A DNA stretch of 48,435 bases from Saprospiraceae bacterium (lineage in GTDB: Bacteria > Bacteroidota > Bacteroidia > Chitinophagales > Saprospiraceae), in assembly GCA_013140975.1 (NCBI GenBank), contig JABFRV010000109.1, positions 1-48,435 on the forward strand, written 5' to 3'. Made by a program: the position numbers and the translations under genes. Shown here piece after piece: positions 7,044 through 37,332 of the stretch; the stretch's first letter is position 1, and every line of letters begins with the position of its first letter. The notes under the pieces are model-generated. The model saw only the letters and a program-made list of their open reading frames with translations. It ran no database searches and had not been told where the DNA came from.

Positions 7044-9083
7044 ATGATTTCCTTAACAATGAACAGAATTGATTTCTCAAATAAGATCCTTTACCTGATT
7101 CCAGTAATATTTATTGCTAGCTGTTATAATATTTATTCTCAAAATGGTCCAATTGTAGCTTGTGAACCTGCTGAATGCCTGATTGATAGTACGAATATAA
7201 AAGAGGATAAATGCTTAGGGCATGTTCATATTCCTGTAATAGCTAAAGATGACCATACGCTGGAAGATGATTTACGTTGGGAATATTTCATTGACCTTAA
7301 CAATGACGGGATTGGTAATTATTTTGGCTTTGATTTATATTCAACTAGTCAAAGTAAGAAACAAAAAGTATTAGGACAACTACCTTCTGAATTTTTTAAT
7401 CCATTTGCAGATCAGGCTCAGTGTTCTTACAATGCAAATGGTATTTACCCAATCGGAATTCATAAGATTCTATTTAGGGTTTATGACAATGATCTAAATA
7501 AAGGAGAATGTGTTCTCGTTTTTAAAGTTAGTGATTGTAAACCACCTAAAATTAAGTGCAAACGAGAAAAAATTGAATATTATATTACAAGTACATCATG
7601 CGTAAATATTAGTTTACACGATTTAATTGAGGAAGCTTCAGATAATTGCTCTGATACGAGTAATATGATATTCTTTCTCAATAATGATATTAAGAAGAAT
7701 AAGCTAACATTATGTTGTGAAGATATTATTAGTAATGGTAAGGAGAAATGTTATGAAGCCGATGTTCCAATACAAGTTTGGCTTATAGATGAAGTCGGGA
7801 ATAAAAGTTATTGCGATCTAAACGTAACGATTAAAGATAACTTGTCAATATGCCCAATATCCTGTCCTTTCGGAAGAATAAGTGTCATTGCTAAAACTAT
7901 AAAGAATGAAATTATTACGCCATTAAATATTGGCCTTTTTAAGAAAGGAGAAATAATAGGTGAAGCAACAGTAAGTCCCTGTCAATTTAATGATTTAGAA
8001 TTTAATCATACCTATGAAGTAAAAGTAAATAAAAATGATAACTTTTTAAATGGTGTAACAACTGCTGATATTGTACAAATACAAAAACATATTCTAGGCA
8101 AGAGTAAGATAATCAATCCCTATATTTTACTTGCAGCTGATGTAAATAAAAGTTGTTCTATAACTTCAGCAGATATTGCTGAAATTAGAAGGTTAATACT
8201 TGGTTCGAAAAGTGAGTTTAGCAAAGTTCCATCTTGGGATTTTGTTCCTGAAAATTACATTTTTAGTGATCCAAATTCACCTTGTAAGACACCAAACGTA
8301 AAAATTATTAATATCAGTTCTACAAATCTATATCAATCAACTGAATTTATTGGATATAAATTAGGTGATGTAACAGGAGATGCCAGGGGCTCTAATTACG
8401 ACGCATTGAATAACAGACAAGATATTTTGCGAACAAAACTTATTACAAAAGATTTGAATTTCAATAAAGGTGAATTAATTCATGTAAGTTTTAAATTAAC
8501 TCAGCCAATTGACTTGGAAGGATTACAATTTACTTTACTGTTTAAGTCTCGCACCCTGCAATATATAGATTATTCTAGTGGAAAAATAAGTTTAGGAGAG
8601 GATTATTTGGGAAAGGAGAATGTTAATAATGGAATCCTGAGATTGTCATGGGACAATGTAAATGGTATATTTATTCAACCAGAAGAAGAACTCTTTTCGA
8701 TTCAATTTTTAGCACAGGATGATGGTGCATTGAGTGATTGCCTCAGTTTGGAATCTTCAGTTAGTACCAATGAAGCGATTTCACCGAATGGAATAAGTGC
8801 TTTAGATTTAGATATTGAGAATCAGAAATTAAGAAGAATTCATGTATATCCTAATCCTGTTAACGATATATCTTTTTTGAACATTCAAGCTAATTCTTCA
8901 GAAAAAGTTGATCTTACAATTATTTCTCTGGATGGAAGAAATGTTTTGCAATTCACTAAACAGATCACCGAAGGGTCCAATAAAATTGCGCTTTCAAAAA
9001 CCCTATTCCCCAATCCTGGATTATATTTTTTATCTATAAAATTTCAAGATATTGAAGAGATGGTAAAATTAGTTATTTATTAA
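7044..9083 (+). CDS. Secreted T9SS protein with dockerin-like repeats (paralog A)
   Basis: This 679-aa protein has an N-terminal signal peptide ending near Y-S-Q (an alternative ATG at 7059 would shorten it by five residues). An N-terminal domain follows with A-K-D-D-H-T-L-E-D-D-L-R-W-E-Y and an N-N-D-G turn. Residues about 335-390 form a dockerin-like pair (LNGVTTADIVQIQKHILG, then AADVNKSCSITSADIAEIRRLILG), and KLGDVTGDA lies near residue 440. A cohesin-like beta domain comes next. The end is a T9SS type A sorting domain (VYPNPVND near residue 600, LDGRNVLQF, GLYFLSI). The dockerin-like loops suggest calcium binding. It is predicted to be exported to the cell surface. Many cysteines in the N-terminal half suggest disulphides. 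The function is unknown. Confidence 0.75.
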   Translation: MISLTMNRIDFSNKILYLIPVIFIASCYNIYSQNGPIVACEPAECLIDSTNIKEDKCLGHVHIPVIAKDDHTLEDDLRWEYFIDLNNDGIGNYFGFDLYSTSQSKKQKVLGQLPSEFFNPFADQAQCSYNANGIYPIGIHKILFRVYDNDLNKGECVLVFKVSDCKPPKIKCKREKIEYYITSTSCVNISLHDLIEEASDNCSDTSNMIFFLNNDIKKNKLTLCCEDIISNGKEKCYEADVPIQVWLIDEVGNKSYCDLNVTIKDNLSICPISCPFGRISVIAKTIKNEIITPLNIGLFKKGEIIGEATVSPCQFNDLEFNHTYEVKVNKNDNFLNGVTTADIVQIQKHILGKSKIINPYILLAADVNKSCSITSADIAEIRRLILGSKSEFSKVPSWDFVPENYIFSDPNSPCKTPNVKIINISSTNLYQSTEFIGYKLGDVTGDARGSNYDALNNRQDILRTKLITKDLNFNKGELIHVSFKLTQPIDLEGLQFTLLFKSRTLQYIDYSSGKISLGEDYLGKENVNNGILRLSWDNVNGIFIQPEEELFSIQFLAQDDGALSDCLSLESSVSTNEAISPNGISALDLDIENQKLRRIHVYPNPVNDISFLNIQANSSEKVDLTIISLDGRNVLQFTKQITEGSNKIALSKTLFPNPGLYFLSIKFQDIEEMVKLVIY

Positions 9084-21484: not shown

Positions 21485-21518
21485 TTGGGAACGAAGATAG
21501 CGTTCCAATATTGTTTTT
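21485..21518 (+). terminator. Rho-independent terminator after the dehydrogenase
   Basis: GGAACG and CGTTCC pair around a 7-base loop, extended by TTG/CAA flanks with one bulged G, and a T-run (TATTGTTTTT) follows. It sits about 45 bases past the dehydrogenase stop and separates it from the TonB-receptor operon. Confidence 0.6.
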
Positions 21519-21758: not shown

Positions 21759-24700
21759 ATGAATTTATTCAAGTGGTCGATAATTGCAGTAATCTGTTTA
21801 TTGGGATTAAACTTGTCAGCGCAGTCTAAAATGTATGGGACAGTTATAGATAAAAGTACTAACGAACCTTTAATAAGCGCAGGAGTAAAAGTATTTAAAG
21901 GAACAGATTTTGTTGCCGGGGCAGCAACTGATTTTGATGGCAATTATAGTATTGCTCTTGACCCCGGAAAGTATAATATAGAGGTTTCTTATTCGGGAAA
22001 TAAAACAACCATAAATGGTATCACAATAAATTCCGGGAAAGCAACTAAGGTTGACGTTACCCTTCAAAGTTCTGTTGAGTTGACAGCAGTTGAAATAGTT
22101 TGGAAGAAGCCGATTATTGAAACGGATAATACAACAAACGCTACTAACATAACCTCAGAACAAATTGATAAAATTGGAACAAGAAATATTAACAATATCG
22201 TGGCAACTGTATCAGGAACATCCAGTGTAAACGGAGGCGACGTAAATATCAGAGGAGGAAGAACAGATGGTACTGTTTATTTCTTGGATGGTGTCAGAGT
22301 TAATGGAAGATTACCTTCTGCTGCAGATATTGAGGAGATAAATGTAATTAAAGGAGGACTTGACCCTCAATATGGTGATGTTACCGGAGGAGTAATTGGC
22401 TTAACAACAAGGGGACCATCAAGTAAGTTCGCCGGTAATATTGAAGGTGAAACTTCCAATGGATTAGATCCATATGGATATACTTTTATTAATGCAAATG
22501 TGAGTGGTCCAATATACAAGAAGGATGGAAGATCCGTAGTTGGATTTAGATTATCCGGCCAATTTACTGAAAACAAAGATGACAACCCACCTGCTTTTGG
22601 TCAGTATTATGCATCCAGATCAACAATTGAAAGATTAAGTGCAGATCCCATTATATTATTCAATGGGGCACCGACTACCAATGCATTTTTCTTAAAAGAA
22701 GGAGATGATGTAAACTTAGAAAAAGCAAACCTAAATAATAGAGCAAGAGCGATTGATCTTACAGCAAAATTAGATGTGAAGCCAAGTACAAATGTTGATT
22801 TCACTTTATCAGGAACGTATTCTAATGTTGACGATCGTTTTGTACCTGGAGATAATTATATAGGTGATGGAACATGGAGATTATTGAATTGGGTTAATAA
22901 TCCGGTTTCTGATAATCAGACACTTAGAGGAAATCTAAGGATAAGACATAGATTGGGTAAATTAGTAGATCTAAAATCACTTGATCAAGAGAATAAAGAG
23001 AACACAGGCGACGGTAAATTATCTGTACTTCAAAATGCTTATTATACTATTCAGTTAGGTTATCAAAACAGAAAAGCATTATCTCAGGATTTCAGACATC
23101 AAGACAGATTTTTTGATTACGGATATGTAGGAAATTTTGATAGAAGATGGATAGAAACAAGAAACGAAAACCAGATTCATACAGGATTTTTACCACTAGT
23201 ATTTGGTTTTAATGGAGATAATTCTAGAAATCCAATTTGGGCTAATTTTAATAAAATCCTACCTGAAGATGCTTTTAATTTAGATTCTTATTTTGCTTCT
23301 AATAGTAGAGTATCCAATTCTTTTAATTCAACCTGGACTGGATTAGCTGCTAATGTTGGTTCTGTGTTTAACAATTACAGCAAATCTGACAATGACTTAA
23401 TGAATATGCTCATAACAAGTGGATTTGACTTTTTGCCAGGAGGTTCATCTAAAAAGGGAAGACATAATATTCAGTTTGGAATCCAGTTAGAACAGTCAGT
23501 ATTCAGAAGTTATACTGTTAGACCATTTAATTTATGGACAATTGGAAGATTATATGCCAATCAACATATCATTGGACTTGATACTCTTAACATCTGTGGT
23601 TATGATAGTCTTGGCAGAGCTATATTTTGTAATTTATCTTCTCCGGCAGAAGGGGCAAAATTTTACCAATCATTACGAGATGTGATTTTTCCTGATTCAA
23701 CTGATCCCGGTGCCAAATCCAGACTTGAAAAAGTATATGTGAATATCGATGGAGTAAGTCCTGATAAATTAAGTCTTTCAATGTTCTCGCCTACAGAATT
23801 AACTGAGCAAAGTATTATTGGTTATAATGGTTATGATTATTTAGGCAACAAACTAAGCAGAGGAACAAAATTTGAAGATTTCTTTTTGAAAAAGGATGCA
23901 AATGGTAATCGAACATATGAAGTAGCTCCTTTCTCACCTATTTATGCAGCCGGATTTATTGGTGATAAATTTATTTATAAGGATATAATATTCAGAGTCG
24001 GTGGCAGGGTTGATTATTATGATGCAAATACCAAAGTTCTTAGAGACCCTTATTCATTGCATGCCATACAAGGAGCTAAAACTTTTCATGATAATAAACA
24101 GATACCAAAACCATCAACAATTGAAGATGACTACAAAGTTTATGTCAACGGTGAAGGATCTTCAAGCGTTAAAGCATATAGAAATGGCGATCAATGGTAT
24201 TTTGCGAATGGAACTCCGGCGAATAACTCACTTGCTATTTTTGGAGAAAGCAATCTTATTTATCCTGCATTTCTCAGAGAAGATGAAAAAGAAAGAAATA
24301 TTCGTAGTTCCACTTTTACAGAATCTAACATCAATGAGTCGTTTGAAGATTATAAGCCACAGATAAATTGGATGCCGAGAATAGCTTTCTCTTTCCCTAT
24401 CTCTGATGCTGCGAATTTTTATGCACACTACGATATCTTGGTTCAGAGACCTACTTCAAATCAATTTGTTTCTCCATTACAATATTATTATTTCGATCTT
24501 TCAGGAAGAACACCATCCGGAAATGGAAGCTTAAGACCATCAAGAAAAATTGATTATGAAGTTGGATTTCAACAAAAAATTACTGACAACTCAGCTTTGA
24601 ATATGTCGGCATATTACAATGAGTTAAGAGATATGATTCAATTTACAACATTGGCTAAGGTAGCGACTATTGGATCTTATAATACATATCGTAACCTTGA

Positions 24701-25418
24701 TTTTGGAACAGTGAAAGGATTTAATTTTAGTTACGAGTTACGAAGAGTAAATAACTTAATGTTTAATGCTGCGTATACCTTACAATTTGCAGATGGAACA
24801 GGATCTGATCCTAATTCTCAAAATGGATTAACAGGAAGAGGAATTAATATTCGAAATATTTTTCCATTTACTTATGACGAGAGACACAGATTTGCATTTA
24901 CCGCAGATTACAGATATGGTTCCGGAAAACAATACAATGGACCTAGAATTGCTGGTAAAGATATTTTTGCAAATACAGGCTTAAATATTTTATTATCAAC
25001 TGCGTCAGGAAGACCTTATTCACCAGGATTAACAGTAATTAGATTTGATGGATCCGGGTATAGAGGAGATATCAATAGTGCCAGATTACCGTGGAACTTC
25101 AATATTGATTTAAGATTGGATCGAGATATTCGATTAACCAATAATCCCAATAAAAATTACGGGCTAAATGTTTATTTCAGAGTTCAGAATCTTTTAGATA
25201 CACGTAGTGTAATTGGTTTATATCGTGGATCTGGAGATGCCAAGGATGATGGTTATCTTAGCTCATCAAGAGGAAAAAATGAAATCATTAATAATACATC
25301 TAGTTTTGGCGCTGAGAATATAGATTTCTTCTTAGATGCTTATAATTGGGCTTTACTTAACCCTGGGAATTTTATTCTGCCAAGAAGAATTTTCGTAGGT
25401 GCAGTATTTAGTTTTTAA
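21759..25418 (+). CDS. TonB-dependent receptor with carboxypeptidase-like N-terminal domain
   Basis: This 1219-aa outer-membrane barrel starts at the ATG at 21759, chosen because it opens a proper signal peptide (MNLFKWSIIAVICLLGLNLSAQ). Residues about 23-105 form a carboxypeptidase-like regulatory domain (MYGTVIDKSTNEPLISAGVKV, then TDFDGNYSI). A plug domain follows (VNIRGGRTDGTVYFLDGVRVNG, then VIKGGLDPQYGDVTGGVI). The rest is a long barrel ending in F-V-G-A-V-F-S-F with the terminal aromatic needed by the BAM machinery. Such receptors import large ligands using TonB energy. There is no SusD partner. The 1358-aa secreted protein and a PorV-like barrel follow, so a dedicated surface role is possible. 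Confidence 0.9.
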   Translation: MNLFKWSIIAVICLLGLNLSAQSKMYGTVIDKSTNEPLISAGVKVFKGTDFVAGAATDFDGNYSIALDPGKYNIEVSYSGNKTTINGITINSGKATKVDVTLQSSVELTAVEIVWKKPIIETDNTTNATNITSEQIDKIGTRNINNIVATVSGTSSVNGGDVNIRGGRTDGTVYFLDGVRVNGRLPSAADIEEINVIKGGLDPQYGDVTGGVIGLTTRGPSSKFAGNIEGETSNGLDPYGYTFINANVSGPIYKKDGRSVVGFRLSGQFTENKDDNPPAFGQYYASRSTIERLSADPIILFNGAPTTNAFFLKEGDDVNLEKANLNNRARAIDLTAKLDVKPSTNVDFTLSGTYSNVDDRFVPGDNYIGDGTWRLLNWVNNPVSDNQTLRGNLRIRHRLGKLVDLKSLDQENKENTGDGKLSVLQNAYYTIQLGYQNRKALSQDFRHQDRFFDYGYVGNFDRRWIETRNENQIHTGFLPLVFGFNGDNSRNPIWANFNKILPEDAFNLDSYFASNSRVSNSFNSTWTGLAANVGSVFNNYSKSDNDLMNMLITSGFDFLPGGSSKKGRHNIQFGIQLEQSVFRSYTVRPFNLWTIGRLYANQHIIGLDTLNICGYDSLGRAIFCNLSSPAEGAKFYQSLRDVIFPDSTDPGAKSRLEKVYVNIDGVSPDKLSLSMFSPTELTEQSIIGYNGYDYLGNKLSRGTKFEDFFLKKDANGNRTYEVAPFSPIYAAGFIGDKFIYKDIIFRVGGRVDYYDANTKVLRDPYSLHAIQGAKTFHDNKQIPKPSTIEDDYKVYVNGEGSSSVKAYRNGDQWYFANGTPANNSLAIFGESNLIYPAFLREDEKERNIRSSTFTESNINESFEDYKPQINWMPRIAFSFPISDAANFYAHYDILVQRPTSNQFVSPLQYYYFDLSGRTPSGNGSLRPSRKIDYEVGFQQKITDNSALNMSAYYNELRDMIQFTTLAKVATIGSYNTYRNLDFGTVKGFNFSYELRRVNNLMFNAAYTLQFADGTGSDPNSQNGLTGRGINIRNIFPFTYDERHRFAFTADYRYGSGKQYNGPRIAGKDIFANTGLNILLSTASGRPYSPGLTVIRFDGSGYRGDINSARLPWNFNIDLRLDRDIRLTNNPNKNYGLNVYFRVQNLLDTRSVIGLYRGSGDAKDDGYLSSSRGKNEIINNTSSFGAENIDFFLDAYNWALLNPGNFILPRRIFVGAVFSF

Positions 25419-25449
25419 TAATAGAAAATAACTGTTAAAGTTTTACAAT

Positions 25450-28400
25450 ATGAAAAAAATACATTTTTTAATCATTGCATTTCTTTTATCTGTTGGAACA
25501 TCATGGGCCACCCGACCACAGAAAAAAGAAGGAATAAAAGAAAAAAATAGTAGTACGGTATTATCACCAAGAGAAAATTGTGCTCCGGCTACGAAACAGA
25601 TTGATCAGGATGTCAATAATGTTAGAGCCAGATTGTTAAATGGAGGCGATTGTTGGAATGATAATGCAGGCCAAGCTAAAGGTAGATATATTGTTCCGAA
25701 GATAGAAGCTGGCTCAGGCAAACAAGAAGTTTCATCGCTGTTTGCAGGAGGTGTTTGGGTTGGAGGATTAGATCCGGCAGGAGCTTTGAAGTTAATGGGA
25801 CAAACGTATAGATCTGCAACTGCCAATGATTGTTGGCCGGGACCACTTACAGATTTAGGAGAAGCTTCAACTAAAACCTGTTTGGATTGGGATAGATTTT
25901 TCAGAGTATCAGGTGCGAATATTCGTAATTTAATAAGAGATTATGCCGCTAATAACGGAGCACCTTTAAGTGTAGATCAAATTCCAGATGATATAAAATA
26001 TTTTCCTTGCAGAGGAAATAAATACTTTGAAGGATTCTATAAGTTTCCTTTACCTGACACGAGGGCAGGATTGGCTTTATTCAATGATAAAAATAATAAT
26101 AAAGCGTATGAACCTGAACTTGGCGAATATCCGACTATAGATATTGCGGGTTGTCGAAATGATCTATATCCGGATGATATGATATTTTGGATTTACAATG
26201 ATAACGGAGGAATTCATACAAATTCAAGAGGAGAAGCGATTCGTATGGAGATTCAGGTTCAAGCATTTTCGTTCAGAACTGCAGACGAGTTGAATGATAT
26301 GACTTTTCAGCGATATAAACTTGTAAACAGAGCACCTCAAGAAATAAGGGACTGTTATTTTGCAATGTGGATTGACCCGGATCTTGGATGTTATAGTGAT
26401 GATTATATAGGTTGTGACACTACAAGTACAGGAAAATTAATTTCAGGAACCAGCAGACCAAGAAAAAGAGATTTAATGTATATTTATAATATTGATGCTA
26501 CCGATGGTAGTAATGGTTGTACCTGTGATCAATCTGTAAATACATATTGCACTGATATTCCAATTCTTGGAATTGATTATTTCAGAGGTCCTTTAGATAC
26601 ATTGGGATTCGAACTAGGAATGAGTTACTTTATGTATTATAACGGAAGAGGACTTGGAGGAAATAATCCACAAGCTACATTTGATCCATCAGCTTCATCA
26701 GAATTTTACAATTATATGAGAGCAATATGGTTGGACAACACGCCTTTAACTATAGGAGGAAATGGATATAATCCGGGAAGTACAAACATAACCAATTATG
26801 CATTTTCCGGAGCTCCTGATGACGCTACTGGATGGAGCATGTGTACCGGAAATGCAGGTGAAGGAGATAGAAGAACCATACAATCTACCGGACCACTTAC
26901 ACTGTTACCGGGTGCAAAAAACGAATTGATCATAGGAGTTCCCTGGGTTCCAGCACAGACATACCCATGTCCTTCTTTGGATGACTTATTAAAGGCAGAC
27001 CAATTATGTCAGGATCTATTTGACAATTGTTTTGATTTAAAAGATGGACCAGATGCTCCTAATGTAGACTTTGTAGAATTAGATCAGGAATTAATAATGC
27101 TATTAAGTAATTCGGAAGGTTCCAATAATTTTAATGAAAAATATCAAGAAGTAGGCATAGGGTTTCCACCTAATGTTGATAGCCTTTATAGATTTGAAGG
27201 ATATAGAATCTTTCAGGTAGCAGATCAAAATACTTCTATAACAGAAGCCAATATTGCAGATCCGCAAAGAATGCGTGAAATATTCAATGTTGACCTAAAA
27301 AACAAGGTATTAAAGTTATACAATTGGGTACCAACAAAAAACCCATTTTCTAGTCCTACTCATCCTTTGGTTTACACCCCAGTACTTAAAGTGGAAGGTA
27401 CAGACAAAGGAACGAAATACAGCTTTACTATAAAGGAAGACGCATTTGCAACCGGATTGAATAAACAATTGATAAATCATAAGAAATATTTTTATATAGT
27501 TTTAGCGTATGCATATAACAGTTATGAAGAATTTGATGTAAAAAATACAACAGGACAAAGAATGCCCTATTGTGCAGGAAGACTTAACCTTGGACCTGCC
27601 GGTGATGGAAGACCATATACTGCAATTCCAAGACCTCAAAGATTTGAACTTGTCAAATCCAAATACGGTGATGGTGTTGAAATTACTAGAAATGATGGTA
27701 TTGGAACCGGAGAAACTTTTTTAAGATTAAAAGATGATATGTATGATAAGATCTTAAATGGTTCTTTCGATAATAAAATTACTTATAAACCGGGAGCAGG
27801 ACCAGTTGAGATCAAAATCGTAAATCCATTAAAAGTTAAAAATGGAGAATATGAAATACGATTTACAGATGCAAATTTATCTGATAAAAAACTGGAAACT
27901 ACTGCATTCTGGACCTTAACCGGAATTACTGATCCATCCATTTCGATTAAATCTAATAGCGACATTAGTAAATTTACTGAACAAGTTATTGGACAATTAG
28001 GAATATCGATTACGAATGGACAAATTCCGGATGCCGGTGAAGAACCATTGGAAACGAATGGTATTATTGGAAGTGGTCTGGAATTAAATTACAAGGATAA
28101 CAATGGGACTAAATGGTTTATCTCCCAATTTGATAATGATGGAAATCCATTATTAAACTTTATTAAAACTGATTTAGCCCCTAATACTTTACGCGCTTTA
28201 GATCCAAATGGGTTGTATGCAAAATTGGGAAATCAAACAAATTTAATAGGTTCCTGGTACCCTTATAGAATGGTTACCGGAGATACATTGCCATTAACAC
28301 CAGGTTGGACTTCCGGAACAAACAGAACAGCAACTTCAGGAATGAAGTTGGCAGACTTGAATAACGTTGACATAGTTTTTACCTCTGATAAATCAAAGTG

Positions 28401-29526
28401 GTCAAGATGCGTAGTCATTGAGACATGGAATAGAAATAATATAATACCAGAGACTGATATTAACCCAATAAGTGGCGCCAAGAATTTTCAAGTAAAGGAA
28501 TCACTTAAATCAGTTGGGAAAAATGACAATGATGGTGATGGTAAAGCAGATCCGGATGGAGAAAAAGACGCAGCCGGACGTGATTTAACGGGCATGGGAT
28601 GGTTCCCGGGATATGCTATTGATGTAGAGTCAGGTAAAAGACTAAATATTTTCTTCGGAGAAAATTCATTTTATTCTGCAGAAAGTTTCATTAAAGATTG
28701 TCTTGTCGATTCTATTGGAACCGGCAATGACCTTATGTGGAATCCTTCCAATCAAATTGGAATCAATGGTTGTGGATTTGATATAAGAAGGGATCCTATT
28801 GCAGTTGTATTAGGAGGTCATCATTATATATATGTTACACGAACTGCTTATGATTCCTGCAAAAAAATCAGAGCAGATATCTTGAATGCCAAAACGACTC
28901 CAACAAGATACGTGAATATAATAAAAGATAATTTAACATGGTGCTCAATGCCTATGTTATTAAATAATACAAGATTGAATCCATTAGGAAGCGGGCCAAA
29001 TGGGTTAATTCCTAATGATTTAACAGTTAGCTTAAGAGTTAGAAATCCTTACCAGGTAGAAACAGGTACAAACGAAAATCAAGGACACAATCTTTATAGA
29101 TTTAAAATTGATGATCAACAAGCCGGTACTGTAGAAAAGAAAGATGAATATGTTGATGCAATGAGAGATATCAATGTTGTTCCTAATCCTTATTATGGAT
29201 TTTCATCTTACGAAACAAGTCAGTTTAGCAATATTGTAAAAATTACAAATCTTCCACCAAGATGTAACGTAACCATTTTTTCAATTGACGGAAAGTTTAT
29301 TAAACAGTATAAGAGAGATGAAAAACCAATCGTTATAAAAGATGTAACAAGAGGTTTATCTGAAAAGCAAATTTCACCAGATATAGAATGGGATTTAACA
29401 AATTTCAAAGGAGTACCAATTGCGAGTGGTGCATATTTGATTCATGTTGAGCAACCTGATACCGGTGCAGAAAAGATTATCAAATGGTTTGGCGTTGCAC
29501 GTAAATTTGATCCTTCAGGCTTATAA
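25450..29526 (+). CDS. Very large exported surface protein, unknown function
   Basis: This 1358-aa protein has a signal peptide (MKKIHFLIIAFLLSVGTSWA). The N-terminal two thirds are rich in aspartate, glycine and cysteine (N-C-A-P-A-T-K-Q-I-D, then SSLFAGGVWVGGLDPAG, then DDMIFWIYNDNGG) and show no enzyme motif. Near residue 1015 is an acidic D-N-D-G-D-G-K-A-D-P-D-G stretch, a likely calcium site. The C-terminal 120 residues have V-V-P-N-P-Y-Y-G-F-S-S-Y-E, V-K-I-T-N-L-P and W-D-L-T-N-F-K-G-V-P-I-A-S-G-A-Y-L, a FlgD-type Ig fold, and end K-W-F-G-V-A-R-K-F-D-P-S-G-L. It resembles a T9SS cargo C-terminus but is not a plain type A domain. It lies 31 bases after the TonB receptor and 68 before the PorV-like gene. 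Confidence 0.78.
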   Translation: MKKIHFLIIAFLLSVGTSWATRPQKKEGIKEKNSSTVLSPRENCAPATKQIDQDVNNVRARLLNGGDCWNDNAGQAKGRYIVPKIEAGSGKQEVSSLFAGGVWVGGLDPAGALKLMGQTYRSATANDCWPGPLTDLGEASTKTCLDWDRFFRVSGANIRNLIRDYAANNGAPLSVDQIPDDIKYFPCRGNKYFEGFYKFPLPDTRAGLALFNDKNNNKAYEPELGEYPTIDIAGCRNDLYPDDMIFWIYNDNGGIHTNSRGEAIRMEIQVQAFSFRTADELNDMTFQRYKLVNRAPQEIRDCYFAMWIDPDLGCYSDDYIGCDTTSTGKLISGTSRPRKRDLMYIYNIDATDGSNGCTCDQSVNTYCTDIPILGIDYFRGPLDTLGFELGMSYFMYYNGRGLGGNNPQATFDPSASSEFYNYMRAIWLDNTPLTIGGNGYNPGSTNITNYAFSGAPDDATGWSMCTGNAGEGDRRTIQSTGPLTLLPGAKNELIIGVPWVPAQTYPCPSLDDLLKADQLCQDLFDNCFDLKDGPDAPNVDFVELDQELIMLLSNSEGSNNFNEKYQEVGIGFPPNVDSLYRFEGYRIFQVADQNTSITEANIADPQRMREIFNVDLKNKVLKLYNWVPTKNPFSSPTHPLVYTPVLKVEGTDKGTKYSFTIKEDAFATGLNKQLINHKKYFYIVLAYAYNSYEEFDVKNTTGQRMPYCAGRLNLGPAGDGRPYTAIPRPQRFELVKSKYGDGVEITRNDGIGTGETFLRLKDDMYDKILNGSFDNKITYKPGAGPVEIKIVNPLKVKNGEYEIRFTDANLSDKKLETTAFWTLTGITDPSISIKSNSDISKFTEQVIGQLGISITNGQIPDAGEEPLETNGIIGSGLELNYKDNNGTKWFISQFDNDGNPLLNFIKTDLAPNTLRALDPNGLYAKLGNQTNLIGSWYPYRMVTGDTLPLTPGWTSGTNRTATSGMKLADLNNVDIVFTSDKSKWSRCVVIETWNRNNIIPETDINPISGAKNFQVKESLKSVGKNDNDGDGKADPDGEKDAAGRDLTGMGWFPGYAIDVESGKRLNIFFGENSFYSAESFIKDCLVDSIGTGNDLMWNPSNQIGINGCGFDIRRDPIAVVLGGHHYIYVTRTAYDSCKKIRADILNAKTTPTRYVNIIKDNLTWCSMPMLLNNTRLNPLGSGPNGLIPNDLTVSLRVRNPYQVETGTNENQGHNLYRFKIDDQQAGTVEKKDEYVDAMRDINVVPNPYYGFSSYETSQFSNIVKITNLPPRCNVTIFSIDGKFIKQYKRDEKPIVIKDVTRGLSEKQISPDIEWDLTNFKGVPIASGAYLIHVEQPDTGAEKIIKWFGVARKFDPSGL

Positions 29527-29594
29527 TAATAGTAAAGATTCGGTTGAGAAATTTTATAATGATTTCTCAACCGATTTTCAAAAAAAACAAGATT

Positions 29595-30641
29595 ATGAAA
29601 AGAGAATTTTACAAAATATTAAGTTTAACATTCTTAACACTATTAACTATTCATCTACATGCAGGTAATCCTGATAGACAAGGAGAAGCCGGAGCTTATG
29701 AATTACTCATTAATCCATGGGCAAGAGGGTCTGCATTAAATACTTTAAATGCTTCCAGAGTCAAGGGTACCGAAGCAATGATGGTAAATCCTGCAGGTCT
29801 TGGAAGAATTAGTAAAAGACAAGAAATACTTGCGGCGCATACAAGATGGCTGGTACCAAGTGGTATAACTGTTAATTCATTTGGGTATACTACTAAGAAA
29901 GGAGAAAATGGCGCTCTTTCATTTTCTCTAATGTCTTTGGACATGGGAAATATCAAGGTTACTACTACTGAATCGCCGGAAGGAACAGGCGCAACATACA
30001 AACCTACATTTTTCAACTTAGGTGTCGGTTATTCATATACTTTTGGTGGTAAAGTTTCAGTAGGATCTGCAGTTAGAGTAATTAGTGAAACAATATCAGA
30101 TCTATCTGCTTTCGGATTTTGTATTGATGGAGGAGTTCAATATGCAGCAGGCGATGAGAATCAATTTAAATTAGGAATTGCACTGCGTAATATTGGCAGT
30201 CCAATGAGATTTAGTGGTTCAGGTTTATCAACCCAATTACAAGGTCCGGCAGGTCATCAATTAACATATGACGTAAGATTAAGTCGTTTTGAATTACCAT
30301 CCTTATTGCACCTTGGTATGAGTTATGACTTCAAGGTAGGAGATTATATTACAACTACGCCGATGGCTAATTTCACGGCAAATTCTTTTGGAAAAGATCT
30401 ATTGGGAGTTGGTCTGGAAACAGAGATTAATAAAATGTTTTCATTGCGATTCTCTTATAGTGGTCCATTAGGTTCAAGTGATGTTGAAACCAAAGGTGCA
30501 TACCTTGGATTTGGTATGGGATTCGGACTTGAATACCCATTAGATAAAAAAGGTAATAATATCCTTATGTTGGACTATGGTTACCGTCCCACAAACCCTT
30601 TTCAAGGAACTCACAATATTGGAATTGGCTTATCATTCTAG
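29595..30641 (+). CDS. PorV/PorQ-family outer-membrane barrel
   Basis: This 348-aa protein starts at the ATG at 29595, which opens a signal peptide (MKREFYKILSLTFLTLLTIHLHA); upstream codons from 29544 do not fit. The mature N-terminus has the PorV/PorQ pattern AGAYELLINPWARGSALNTLNAS, then VNPAGL, followed by alternating beta-strands (GVGYSYTFGGKVSVGSAVRVI and similar) and a final N-I-G-I-G-L-S-F with terminal phenylalanine. In the type IX system PorV shuttles cargo from the translocon to the attachment complex, and PorQ-like relatives act similarly. As third gene of the module it may serve the 1358-aa protein specifically; that is inference. Confidence 0.85.
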   Translation: MKREFYKILSLTFLTLLTIHLHAGNPDRQGEAGAYELLINPWARGSALNTLNASRVKGTEAMMVNPAGLGRISKRQEILAAHTRWLVPSGITVNSFGYTTKKGENGALSFSLMSLDMGNIKVTTTESPEGTGATYKPTFFNLGVGYSYTFGGKVSVGSAVRVISETISDLSAFGFCIDGGVQYAAGDENQFKLGIALRNIGSPMRFSGSGLSTQLQGPAGHQLTYDVRLSRFELPSLLHLGMSYDFKVGDYITTTPMANFTANSFGKDLLGVGLETEINKMFSLRFSYSGPLGSSDVETKGAYLGFGMGFGLEYPLDKKGNNILMLDYGYRPTNPFQGTHNIGIGLSF

Positions 30642-30708: not shown

Positions 30709-30743
30709 AAAGAACGTTTTTCAATAAAAGAAAAACGTTCTTT
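30709..30743. terminator. 14-bp-stem hairpin before greA, probable terminator
   Basis: AAAGAACGTTTTTC and GAAAAACGTTCTTT form a perfect 14-bp stem with a 7-base loop, flanked by A- and T-rich bases so that it could stop transcription either way. It lies 68 bases past the PorV-like stop and 24 bases before the greA ATG. It could instead be a greA leader hairpin. Confidence 0.65.
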
Positions 30744-34218: not shown

Positions 34219-37200
34219 ATGAAAAAACTTCAATTCCTTTTATTTTTTATACCCTTTTTAGCAATCAGTCAGGAAACGACTATTAATGTTCAAAAAAGTT
34301 CTTTGGAGCCTTTGAGAACTACGCTTCATATTCAACAGGAAGGCTTTATTCTGGTTAAAGATTTTTTTAGAAAGTTTGAATCAAATTTTGGATTGCATTC
34401 TAATCATGAAATGCGTCAAACGAAAAAATTGATTGAAAATTCTCAATTGGCACATTATAAATTCAAACAGTATTATAAAAATTTAGAAGTTTATGGTGCA
34501 GACTATTTTCTTCACGAAAAAAATGAAAAATTAGTGAGTGGGAATGGACTTATTTTTCCTATTGATGAATTGAATGTGAACCCAGCGATTACTGAGGACA
34601 AATTAGGAGAATTGTGTAGTAATGTATTACACATCAATACAGAAAGTTTTGACTTTCATAACCAACAACTTGTTATAATCAATAAGAATTATCCTTTTTC
34701 AGATGGAGAAATGATTTTGGCATATGTTAATGAAGTACATATTCATCATCCTGTAGTAGATCATAGAAAGATTATTATTAATGCACAAACTGGAGAAGTA
34801 ATTCGAAATTTTACAATTCAGACCAATTGTTTTAAGGACAAGGTGAAAGTAGAAACTTTATATCATGATGAAAGAGATGTCGATGCTGAAAAGGAAGGAT
34901 CGGAATATGTGTCTAAAGATTTATCAAGAGGAGGAGGGATATTTGTAACGAATAAAGCCGGAAAACTTTATTCCAATTCAGAAAATCAATGGGTAGCCGG
35001 ATCAGATAATTACAAAAATGGAATGCATGATCTTTTCTGGGGATTACAAAAGACTTATGATTACTTTAAACAGAAATTAAATCGTGATGGAGCAGATAAT
35101 AAAATGCTACCAATTAAAGCTTTCTTATTGGATACTGAGTCCTATGTCAATGCTTTTTGGTCACCTACATTACATACCTTAAATTTTGGCATTGGTGATG
35201 GAAATAATTATAGTCCATTAACGAGTATTGATGTTGTAGGGCATGAATTTGCTCATGGTGTTACACAATTTTCTGCAGGACTGGAATATTTGTATGAAGC
35301 CGGAGCTTTGAATGAATCTTTCAGTGATATTTTCGGTAAAGCAATCGAATATGAGTATGATAGAAATAAATTTGATTGGTATATAGGTGGCCGTTTTGCA
35401 AAAACGAAAGCACAGTCATTTAGAAATATGGAAAATCCCAATGCTTTCCAATGTCCAAAATACTATAAAGGTATTCAATGGAAAACAGGCTCAGGAGATA
35501 ATGGTGGAGTTCATTTTAATAGTGGTGTACTTAATTATTGGTATTATTTATTGTGTACCGGAAAGGATACTATAAATGAAGCAAAGGTTAACTTTTCAGT
35601 AAAAAAGTTAGGAATTGATTCTGCTACATTATTTGCTTATACTTTACTAAACAACTATTTAGGCAAAACTTCCGGATACTATGATGCTAGAGAAGCATCA
35701 TTATTACTAGCATCTAATTGGTGGGGAGCTTGCAGTCCTGAATATCACAATATATCTGAAGCCTGGAAAGCAGTTGGTGTTGGATCTAATGCTATAGATA
35801 ATGATCTTCAATTGATTAACACAAATGCATTAGTTTCATCTTGTAAAGATGGAGGATATTTTATCGCATCTAGAATTAATAACCAAAGCTGTAGTAAAGA
35901 CATTCCTATTGGTTCTGAAATCATCATGTATTACAAGTTAGATACATTTCCGGTATATAAAGAAACATTAAACCTTTCAAAAGAAATCATAGCAGGTTCT
36001 CATTTGGATTTTAACTTTTCAGTCAATCCAAAAATTGTTAAAAATGGGCAGTCAAGATTAACTGTTTGGATGGAGTCTGGTATAGATTCTGATACTTCCA
36101 ATAATCGATATTCTTTTCTTATTAACCGAATTACAACACAGACGGAACATGATTTTAGAATTAATAATTTTAATGTCATTGGCGCGCCTTGCCCAAATAA
36201 TGGGAATATGTATACGGCTAATTCAAGTTCAACTTATAATGGATGTAATGTAATTCCACCCGGTAATGAATTACAATTGCTCTTTAAGTTTAGCGATTCG
36301 TCTTATACTCATAAGTTCATAAACCAAACATCTATTTACCCCCAGGGATTTATTAGTATTAATGATATTCCCATTCCTAGAAGTTTTTTAGGGCTTAAAA
36401 AGGTAAACGTAAGTTTGATTTGGCCAAAAGATACTTTAATTAATAATAATACATTGGCATCTCAGATCGTAATGATTAATTCACGAGTATTAAATGAATT
36501 GGAAACATTTGAAAGTGCAAAATATGATTCAATCAAATTGGCAGTAAATTCTGATTCTTTTAATACATCAAGGATATATCAGGTGCCAACATTTGACAAT
36601 GATGCATTAGTAATCACGGGAGGAAAAATTTTAAATCCCAACGGTACTTTAATTATCAGAAATGATGCAGACATGAATCAGATGTTTAATAGGAATACAA
36701 AATTTACCACAAAACTTTATATATGTGCGGATGTTAGTCAGATTTCATCTCCTAAATTGGAATTTGATTTAGCGCAAAAAATTGGAAGCTTTAATTATGA
36801 TTCATTAAATTTAAGTGTGCCTCTTTCACCAGCAAGTACGAGGATAAGATTTTATAATTCAAGAAATGAAATACAAGATGAGGTACTAATTTTTGAAGCA
36901 TTAGATGCTTTGGAGAAAAACCATCATGCATATAATATACCACCTTCAACCAATTATATTGATATTACGAATCTTTGCATGAACGGAAGTGTAGATGCAA
37001 GTGGAAATATGAATCCGGATGGTGATTTTATAGTGTTTGACAATATCGTTATAACAGGTTCAACCTTGGTTTCAGATATTCCTTCGACACAAAATATAAT
37101 TGCTTATCCAAATCCTTCGGCGGGTAAAATTGCTCTTCGATGCTTGGATTCTGGAGATTATATTGAGGAATATAGTCTGGTCAATAGTTTAGGTGAAAAT

Positions 37201-37332
37201 ATTGAAAGCAAACGGAATCTGCAGGAAAATGGTCAAATTGAACTTTTAGCGCAAAGAGGAGGTGTGTATTGTGTGAAAGTGAAAACCAAATCAGGCAAGC
37301 AAAGTAGCCTGAAGCTTGTGTTTACTCATTGA
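34219..37332 (+). CDS. Secreted M4-family (thermolysin-like) metalloprotease with T9SS sorting domain
   Basis: This 1037-aa zinc endopeptidase has a signal peptide (MKKLQFLLFFIPFLAIS) and an inhibitory FTP/PepSY propeptide (about residues 25-200). The catalytic domain carries H342-E343-x2-H346 and the third zinc ligand E366 in GALNESFSD, 20 residues on as in thermolysin. H432 in NGGVHFNSGV matches the transition-state histidine. Beta-rich domains of unknown role follow. The C-terminus is a T9SS type A sorting domain (I-I-A-Y-P-N-P-S-A-G-K near residue 962, then SLVNSLGENIESK and GGVYCVKVKTKSG). All catalytic residues are present, so it should be an active secreted or surface protease. Confidence 0.93.
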   Translation: MKKLQFLLFFIPFLAISQETTINVQKSSLEPLRTTLHIQQEGFILVKDFFRKFESNFGLHSNHEMRQTKKLIENSQLAHYKFKQYYKNLEVYGADYFLHEKNEKLVSGNGLIFPIDELNVNPAITEDKLGELCSNVLHINTESFDFHNQQLVIINKNYPFSDGEMILAYVNEVHIHHPVVDHRKIIINAQTGEVIRNFTIQTNCFKDKVKVETLYHDERDVDAEKEGSEYVSKDLSRGGGIFVTNKAGKLYSNSENQWVAGSDNYKNGMHDLFWGLQKTYDYFKQKLNRDGADNKMLPIKAFLLDTESYVNAFWSPTLHTLNFGIGDGNNYSPLTSIDVVGHEFAHGVTQFSAGLEYLYEAGALNESFSDIFGKAIEYEYDRNKFDWYIGGRFAKTKAQSFRNMENPNAFQCPKYYKGIQWKTGSGDNGGVHFNSGVLNYWYYLLCTGKDTINEAKVNFSVKKLGIDSATLFAYTLLNNYLGKTSGYYDAREASLLLASNWWGACSPEYHNISEAWKAVGVGSNAIDNDLQLINTNALVSSCKDGGYFIASRINNQSCSKDIPIGSEIIMYYKLDTFPVYKETLNLSKEIIAGSHLDFNFSVNPKIVKNGQSRLTVWMESGIDSDTSNNRYSFLINRITTQTEHDFRINNFNVIGAPCPNNGNMYTANSSSTYNGCNVIPPGNELQLLFKFSDSSYTHKFINQTSIYPQGFISINDIPIPRSFLGLKKVNVSLIWPKDTLINNNTLASQIVMINSRVLNELETFESAKYDSIKLAVNSDSFNTSRIYQVPTFDNDALVITGGKILNPNGTLIIRNDADMNQMFNRNTKFTTKLYICADVSQISSPKLEFDLAQKIGSFNYDSLNLSVPLSPASTRIRFYNSRNEIQDEVLIFEALDALEKNHHAYNIPPSTNYIDITNLCMNGSVDASGNMNPDGDFIVFDNIVITGSTLVSDIPSTQNIIAYPNPSAGKIALRCLDSGDYIEEYSLVNSLGENIESKRNLQENGQIELLAQRGGVYCVKVKTKSGKQSSLKLVFTH

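What the first reader, a model, noticed from the sequence alone, without database searches (positions are those of the whole stretch)
21759..30641. Three-gene surface module: TonB receptor, 1358-aa exported protein, PorV-like barrel
The three genes lie close together (gaps 31 and 68 bases) between two terminators, so they are probably one operon. The giant protein has a signal peptide and a FlgD-type C-terminus with V-P-N-P-Y-Y but no plain T9SS type A ending. A PorV/PorQ-type barrel, normally a cargo shuttle of the type IX system, is encoded beside it. A dedicated shuttle, cargo and receptor would be a self-contained surface-display or nutrient-capture unit that, as far as I know, has no name.
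Basis: partly seen in the sequence, partly recalled or inferred. Interest (0 to 1): 0.72.

Follow-up and report, generated by a model that had tools for sequence, protein, structure and literature searches.

The report
Phylum-wide TonB–T9SS surface-protein operon
Three neighbouring genes for an outer-membrane uptake channel, a very large exported protein and a dedicated docking barrel stay together in many sampled Bacteroidota genomes, which points to an undescribed kind of surface uptake machine that relies on the type IX secretion system.

Summary
The trio is a conserved unit. Of 110 giants of at least 1000 aa in the loci I fetched, 105 have the receptor directly upstream and the barrel directly downstream on the same strand, in the window's order, in its class and in other classes of Bacteroidota. 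The giant profile hits 204 of 247 class genomes and 102 of 198 phylum genomes, all 102 with the T9SS translocon SprA. In 36 hand-picked genomes receptor and barrel subfamilies were all-or-none with the giant (18 of 18 against 0 of 18). In two genomes of other classes the grammar recurs about ten times and its genes diversify together. The barrel is not PorV, PorQ or PorV2. The giant's C-terminal domain fails the type A model and weakly resembles that of PorZ, whose CTD is retained. Best reading: T9SS exports the giant, its uncleaved CTD docks on its own barrel, and it serves the receptor as surface capture subunit. Export, docking and ligand are inferred. Structure models failed.

The parts
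21759..25418 (+). TonB-dependent receptor, 1219 aa (CarboxypepD_reg + Plug + presumed barrel), of a subfamily linked to the giant
   Evidence: PDB-sequence matches to Cir and PirA
25450..29526 (+). giant exported protein, 1358 aa, no Pfam domain
25561..27084 (+). conserved N-terminal region of the giant (about residues 38-545), shared with shorter (~530-840-aa) paralogs that mostly carry an ordinary type A CTD
29176..29523 (+). C-terminal FlgD/PorZ-like domain of the giant (residues 1243-1358, VVPNPYY...GAYLIHV...KWFGVARKFDPSGL) with a conserved tail after the usual lysine motif
29540..29574 (+). 14-bp hairpin between giant and barrel genes; 29 of 31 order-level gaps tested also fold strongly
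29595..30641 (+). PorV/PorQ-family outer-membrane barrel, 348 aa, distinct from PorV, PorQ and PorV2
30709..30743 (+). 14-bp hairpin after the barrel gene (possible terminator)
   Evidence: not listed by the scan
21488..21506 (+). weak terminator-like hairpin before the receptor gene

Best explanation
The three genes encode one outer-membrane machine. Shown here: they are a co-inherited unit in a fixed order, found in the phylum sample only in genomes that have the T9SS translocon, absent together, and (in two genomes of other classes) diversifying together. Inferred: the giant crosses the inner membrane by Sec and the outer membrane by T9SS. Its long C-terminal domain, which resembles the retained CTD of PorZ more than the cleaved type A signal, is not removed but stays bound to the dedicated PorV/PorQ-like barrel. 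This would work like PorZ on PorQ, or type B adhesins on their SprF-like partners. The barrel thus parks the giant on the surface beside the TonB-dependent receptor, where it captures or presents a ligand that the receptor then imports. It would do for this receptor what a SusD lipoprotein does for SusC, but be delivered by T9SS and held by a barrel instead of a lipid.
For: Fixed receptor-giant-barrel order in 105 of 110 giants >=1000 aa: 49 of 51 order-level (including four named loci whose order I did not check), 37 of 40 in other families of the class, 19 of 19 in other classes. greA follows the barrel in 43 of 48 and 35 of 37 of these loci in the first two groups but 0 of 19 in other classes, so the trio itself is the conserved unit. 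All 102 giant-positive genomes of 198 have SprA; 0 of 44 SprA-negative genomes have the giant. Receptor (E<=1e-30) and barrel (E<=1e-20) profiles ring in 18 of 18 giant-positive and 0 of 18 giant-negative genomes, hand-picked. Barrel: 31 of 31 aligned members match PorV_fam at E<=0.01, and PorQ is the next-best model for the window member; in a corrected tree of 62 barrels PorV, PorQ and PorV2 rows are split from all trio barrels at 99/97. CTD: PorZ model matched by 28 of 34 giants, PorU by 6, type A by 7 with best E 3.1e-4, while 9 of 10 short family members pass type A. The CTD is ~116 residues from VVPNP; published non-cleaved P. gingivalis CTDs are 96 and 108, cleaved ones 67-88, measured from the cleavage site (PMC11285876, passages). 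In G451 and G326, 10 modules each, CTD-barrel distances correlate (rho 0.84 and 0.60, Mantel p 0.0005 and 0.0025).
Against: No experiment. The PorZ-model matches are weak and far below that model's cut-off, and 3 of the 10 short members match it too. Adjacency and joint absence do not show contact, and module-wise correlation would also follow from duplicating the whole operon with no CTD-barrel pairing; with the receptor held fixed the CTD-barrel correlation is 0.55 in G451 and 0.29 in G326. In 17 further loci of other classes, 7 have a giant without the full trio (one of them cut by contig ends), and L162 has two more giants beside its trio; two of 21 receptor-barrel pairs have no protein between them. 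AlphaFold models of both halves failed (mean pLDDT 33.8 and 35.4), so no fold or pocket is known. Nothing in the window names a ligand. The SprA link is clumped: of the 20 SprA-negative genomes listed 19 are one family, f95 (24 more are not listed). Some phylum-level giant hits cover only the CTD.
Confidence: 0.5

Rival explanations
1. The barrel is the giant's private secretion carrier and anchor, but the giant is a structural or adhesive surface protein and the receptor is only co-regulated.
For: The characterised cognate shuttle pairs that I read of (type B CTD with SprF-like proteins) carry putative adhesins (PMC12618676, introduction and discussion). Giants without the full trio exist in other classes (7 of 17 loci) and as second copies in the class (L093, L122, L132).
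Against: The receptor is as tightly linked as the barrel (105 of 110), is absent where the giant is absent (0 of 18; positive control 18 of 18), and receptor-barrel distances correlate best of all pairs (rho 0.92 and 0.70). Two loci have receptor and barrel directly adjacent without a middle protein (L210, L216).
Confidence: 0.25
2. A core envelope-biogenesis complex (a quality-control or BAM-like assembly) in which the trio helps build the outer membrane and imports nothing.
For: Conserved next to greA in most class loci read and found in 204 of 247 class genomes. Bacteroidota BAM contains a FadL-like barrel, BamG, that holds a surface protein, BamH (PMC12611786 and PMC12578637, passages).
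Against: Absent from all sampled members of families that keep SprA (e.g. f20, f72, f35) and recurring about ten times, with middle proteins of very different length, in G451 and G326. BamG and BamH are reported as universal in the phylum and BamH is a lipoprotein.
Confidence: 0.12
3. The barrel is a FadL-like importer of hydrophobic molecules, and giant, receptor and barrel are parallel uptake parts with no CTD docking.
For: PorV is described as a FadL homologue (PMC12578637 passage).
Against: The barrel matches the PorV/PorQ family above cut-off in the window and its best PDB-sequence match is PorV 6h3i (E 1.8e-14). The middle protein ends in a FlgD/PorZ-like domain, judged by eye, wherever its C-terminus was in view.
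Confidence: 0.08

Closest known systems
PorZ-PorQ pair of the T9SS attachment complex
   Same: CTD protein retained on the surface by a PorV/Q-family barrel; the giant's CTD best matches the PorZ C-terminus and the window barrel's next-best model is PorQ
   Different: The genome has its own PorQ (318.9 bits) and PorZ (478.3 bits) elsewhere; giant and barrel fail both equivalog cut-offs; PorZ-PorQ is not operon-linked to a TonB receptor as far as I know (recalled)
Type B CTD substrates with cognate PorP/SprF-like shuttles
   Same: Dedicated barrel commonly encoded directly downstream of its CTD protein (PMC12618676, abstract, introduction and discussion read)
   Different: Here the barrel is PorV/Q-family and the CTD is type A/PorZ-like; a TonB-dependent receptor is part of the unit
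SusCD and similar TonB transporter plus surface lipoprotein pairs
   Same: TonB-dependent receptor encoded with a presumed surface partner; multi-copy in some genomes
   Different: No SusC-family match and no SusD next door; the partner has a non-lipoprotein-looking signal sequence (by eye) and a T9SS-type CTD, plus its own barrel
Bacteroidota BAM (BamA-BamG-BamH)
   Same: FadL-fold barrel holding a surface protein
   Different: No BamA among the three proteins; patchy distribution, and multi-copy in some genomes. No sequence comparison with BamG or BamH was made
PorU2/PorV2 putative second T9SS sorting set (NCBIfam names)
   Same: Extra PorV-family barrel in the same genome
   Different: PorV2 is a separate gene here (L080, 395.8 bits); the trio's barrel scores 40 bits on that model

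Membership tests
PorV/PorQ family (NF033709) | score over curated cut-off 90 bits | tested here: met
   129.6 bits; all 31 aligned members match the model at E<=0.01
PorV (NF033710) | equivalog cut-off 250 bits | tested here: not met
   53.4 bits; the genome's true PorV scores 440.7
PorQ (NF033711) | equivalog cut-off 220 bits | tested here: not met
   67.2 bits; the genome's true PorQ scores 318.9
PorV2 (NF052325) | equivalog cut-off 325 bits | tested here: not met
   40.2 bits
T9SS type A substrate (TIGR04183) | CTD over 23 bits | tested here: not met
   no match at E<=1 for the window giant; 7 of 34 members match at E<=0.01, best E 3.1e-4, about 20.5 bits by comparison. Two of nine middle proteins of other classes do pass
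T9SS substrate in the wide sense | Sec signal plus CTD and dependence on the SprA translocon | tested here: inconclusive
   signal-like N-terminus by eye; weak PorZ-type CTD match; SprA in 102 of 102 giant-positive genomes; no secretion test
PorZ (NF052228) | full-length equivalog over 260 bits | tested here: not met
   22 bits, C-terminus only; true PorZ (open frame 783 aa, 478.3 bits) elsewhere
TonB-dependent receptor | Plug domain PF07715 over its gathering score | tested here: met
   37.3 against 23.9 bits
SusCD pair | SusC-type receptor with adjacent SusD lipoprotein | tested here: not met
   no SusC-family match among NCBIfam hits at E<=1; neighbours are a dehydrogenase upstream and giant and barrel downstream
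cognate CTD-shuttle pair | the CTD binds, or needs, its own barrel for secretion or anchoring | not testable with these tools
   only linkage and covariation available

The most novel reading that the evidence does not exclude
A third architecture of TonB-dependent uptake: receptor, T9SS-delivered capture protein with a retained CTD, and a dedicated PorV/Q-type docking barrel. It would be ancestral to much of Bacteroidota, kept mostly as one conserved unit in the window's class, lost in some families, and expanded to about ten copies per genome in some lineages of other classes, where it would play the part that SusCD systems play in gut Bacteroidia.
Probability: 0.35. Interest if true: 0.87.

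Novelty: new variant of a known kind. Interest (0 to 1): 0.72.

Why it matters
If right, type IX secretion does more than release enzymes and adhesins: it builds subunits of TonB-dependent transporters, each with its own docking barrel. That could explain why the 14 genomes of other classes searched carry 6 to 23 PorV/Q-family barrels (9 or more in 13 of the 14), against 2 to 7 in 14 genomes of the class, and would give a testable function to a conserved but unnamed operon whose middle gene is found in 204 of 247 sampled class genomes.

Tried and rejected
Structure of the giant: two AlphaFold jobs (residues 22-720 and 700-1358) on five-row alignments failed, so I ran no fold search. Profile of the giant against PDB sequences: no hit at E<=1; Pfam on 34 giants: FlgD_ig in 4 (best E 0.04) and one other weak hit in 1.

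First barrel tree: three of its 62 rows (L184, L194, L195) were wrong reading frames picked as the longest ORF. On checking I rebuilt it with frames chosen by a profile and report only that tree.

The giant as PorZ or the barrel as PorQ: rejected, since true copies lie elsewhere in the genome. Identity with the Bacteroidota BAM complex: considered after and rejected on published composition, not by a sequence test.

The chromosomal neighbours (dehydrogenase, greA, HIT) as parts: rejected because greA does not follow the barrel in 19 of 19 loci of other classes.

Ligand guess from neighbours of modules in other classes: 20 flanking proteins from eight loci (L151-L154, L156, L163, L165, L225) included an amidohydrolase, a POT/MFS transporter, a T9SS-tailed GHL10 glycosidase and sensor kinases, but also unrelated genes; too mixed to name a ligand.

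Papers: searches in the held open-access library listed no paper whose title or abstract start describes this trio; I looked into six papers only (one in sections: PMC12618676; five by passages: PMC12611786, PMC12578637, PMC10994853, PMC10202324, PMC11285876). Subscription papers and preprints were not searched.
Full report
What is there. On the + strand lie a TonB-dependent receptor (21759-25418), a 1358-residue exported protein (25450-29526) and a PorV/PorQ-family barrel (29595-30641), with gaps of 31 and 68 bases. The receptor has a plug domain above its cut-off and a carboxypeptidase-regulatory-like domain; no SusC-family model matched at E<=1. The giant matches no Pfam family at E<=1. In NCBIfam its only match at E<=1 is the C-terminus of PorZ (E 4.8e-5, 22 bits, far below that equivalog's cut-off of 260). 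The barrel passes the PorV/PorQ family model (129.6 bits, cut-off 90) but fails the PorV, PorQ and PorV2 equivalogs.

The genome. The window is one contig (G000:C190) of a 3.97-Mb assembly. The closest named relative found encodes the giant at 71% identity and is a Saprospiraceae metagenome-assembled genome. The assembly has SprA, PorU beside PorV, PorQ, PorV2 and PorZ. So a general T9SS sorting set exists, and the trio's barrel is a further PorV/Q-family member.

Conservation of the trio. The giant is found in 55 of 60 near relatives, 204 of 247 genomes drawn across the class and 102 of 198 drawn across the phylum, each count including the window's own genome. The last figure includes matches that cover only the C-terminal domain. 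I fetched loci around many of these places. The places were chosen, not random: mostly one per genome in the order plus four named loci, one or two per family in the class, and high-scoring plus three weak ones in other classes. I counted every giant ORF of at least 1000 aa, leaving out fragments, one duplicate locus (L083) and loci fetched for short paralogs or other barrels (L073-L081). The receptor lies directly upstream and the barrel directly downstream in 49 of 51 (order and named loci), 37 of 40 (other families of the class) and 19 of 19 (other classes), 105 of 110 in all. The five exceptions are L093 (a second giant behind a complete trio), L122 and L132 (further copies in genomes whose trio is in L121 and L131), L098 (only 1.2 kb of contig upstream) and L137 (contig ends 0.6 kb after the giant). 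The gene greA follows the barrel in 43 of 48 and 35 of 37 loci of the first two groups but 0 of 19 in other classes, so the trio, not the neighbourhood, is the conserved unit.

Link to type IX secretion. In the same 198-genome sample SprA is found in 154. All 102 giant-positive genomes have it and none of the 44 SprA-negative ones has the giant. The SprA-negative genomes are clumped (19 of the 20 listed belong to family f95; 24 are not listed), so this is weaker than the raw table suggests. Conversely 52 SprA-positive genomes lack the giant, so the trio is not needed for T9SS. In 18 giant-positive and 18 giant-negative genomes that I picked, the receptor profile (E<=1e-30) rang in 18 of 18 and 0 of 18, and the barrel profile (E<=1e-20) likewise in 18 of 18 and 0 of 18. 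The three genes are present or absent together.

The C-terminal domain. Among 34 aligned giants, 28 match the PorZ C-terminus, 6 the PorU model and 7 the type A model at E<=0.01, the best type A E-value being 3.1e-4. Of ten short family members (530-842 aa; eight at loci where no receptor or barrel hit was seen, two beside a trio in L092), nine pass the type A cut-off and three also match the PorZ model. In the class most trio giants end in a conserved tail after the usual lysine motif (...GVYLIHV..PG.GE+..KWFGV.R..D...F/L), while the short solitary paralogs end at or near the ordinary motif (read by eye). From VVPNP to the end the domain has about 116 residues. The literature reports 67-88 residues from the cleavage site for cleaved P. 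gingivalis CTDs and 96 and 108 for the non-cleaved PorZ and PorU (PMC11285876, passages only); my measure starts elsewhere, so the comparison is rough. A 2023 review suggests that cognate PorV-like barrels may protect CTDs from cleavage, naming PorZ/PorQ and type B with SprF-like proteins (PMC10202324, passages). A 2025 study shows that type B substrates need cognate SprF-like shuttles, commonly encoded next door (PMC12618676; abstract, introduction and discussion read).

The barrel's place in its family. A first tree held three wrong-frame rows; the corrected tree of 62 PorV/Q-family barrels splits PorV, PorQ and PorV2 rows (16, with seven unlabelled rows beside PorQ) from 46 others at 99/97. 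The PorV labels beyond the window genome's own copy rest on high family scores only. Among the 46, one supported group of 33 (100/98) holds the trio barrels of the class and most of those from other classes; inside it, 15 class rows and 5 rows of four families in other classes form a group (99/94). A second group of 13 (95/87) holds trio barrels L159, L160, L161, L174, L175, L181 and seven further barrels of other classes, three of which (L193, L194, L195) belong to trios read in L225, L207 and L217. So trios exist with more than one barrel lineage.

Recurrence outside the class. In the 14 genomes of other classes searched, PorV/Q-family matches (E<=1e-5) number 6 to 23, against 2 to 7 in the 14 genomes of the class. 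I read 19 regions of two single-contig genomes (10 of G451, 9 of G326) and one of G354, picked because a receptor and a barrel hit lay close together; the count therefore says nothing about receptors without barrels. They hold 21 receptor-barrel pairs. In 19 an ORF of 617-1304 aa (stop to stop) with a FlgD/PorZ-like end, judged by eye, lies between, and in 2 (L210, L216) the two genes are directly adjacent (the L208 middle ORF is seen only). Of nine such middle proteins scanned, seven match the PorZ C-terminus at E<=0.01, and two pass the type A cut-off (25.2 and 24.1 bits). Seventeen further giant loci from other classes show the full trio in 10 and not in 7. Within G451 and within G326 (10 modules each) the pairwise distances correlate: CTD-barrel 0.84 and 0.60, CTD-receptor 0.76 and 0.63, barrel-receptor 0.92 and 0.70, Mantel p 0.0025 or lower for each; body-receptor in G326 is weakest (0.31, p 0.009). 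So modules diverge as units. With the receptor held fixed the CTD-barrel correlation is 0.55 and 0.29, which hints at, but does not prove, specific CTD-barrel pairing.

Mechanism. The best reading is that T9SS exports the giant, its retained CTD docks on the dedicated barrel, and the giant acts as extracellular partner of the receptor. Conserved order, joint absence, joint divergence and co-occurrence with SprA are shown. Secretion, docking, complex formation and ligand are inferred. Rivals are a surface adhesin with a merely linked receptor, an envelope-assembly complex, and a FadL-like import barrel.

Limits. Structure prediction of the giant failed (mean pLDDT 33.8 and 35.4), probably because only five sequences could be used, so neither fold nor pocket is known. 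Other phyla were not searched. The literature searches cover only the held open-access library.

Noticed in passing
window 29540-29574; order-level loci: Strong hairpin between giant and barrel genes; in the order-level group 29 of 31 giant-barrel gaps of 40-250 nt fold with z<=-2 with differing sequences, against 5 of 16 and 2 of 10 in the other groups (the window itself is). It may be a partial terminator that sets the giant:barrel ratio.
   Followed up: partly
L206-L225: Multi-copy receptor-CTD protein-barrel modules in genomes of other classes, with middle proteins of very different length, and two receptor-barrel pairs with nothing between (L210, L216).
   Followed up: partly
L159, L160, L161, L174, L175, L181: Trios whose giant shares little but the C-terminal domain with the window's and whose barrel lies in another part of the family tree; genomes G326 and G313 hold both types.
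   Followed up: partly
L093 (G012:C224): A second full-length giant directly behind a complete trio, i.e. giant-barrel-giant.
   Followed up: no
L037:2-2413 (G000:C22): 804-aa paralog of the giant's N-terminal part with an ordinary type A CTD (42.2 bits).
   Followed up: no
L080:9329-10438: The same genome encodes NCBIfam's putative PorV2 (395.8 bits).
   Followed up: no
window 7044-9083 and 34219-37332: Two further likely T9SS substrates: a 679-aa type A protein (39.4 bits) and a 1037-aa thermolysin-like metalloprotease with a type A tail (26.2 bits).
   Followed up: no
G055, G130, G160, G260, G281, G300, G424 (family f20): All seven members of this family in the phylum sample, from the window's own order, lack the giant but keep SprA, a family-level absence to compare with carriers.
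   Followed up: partly
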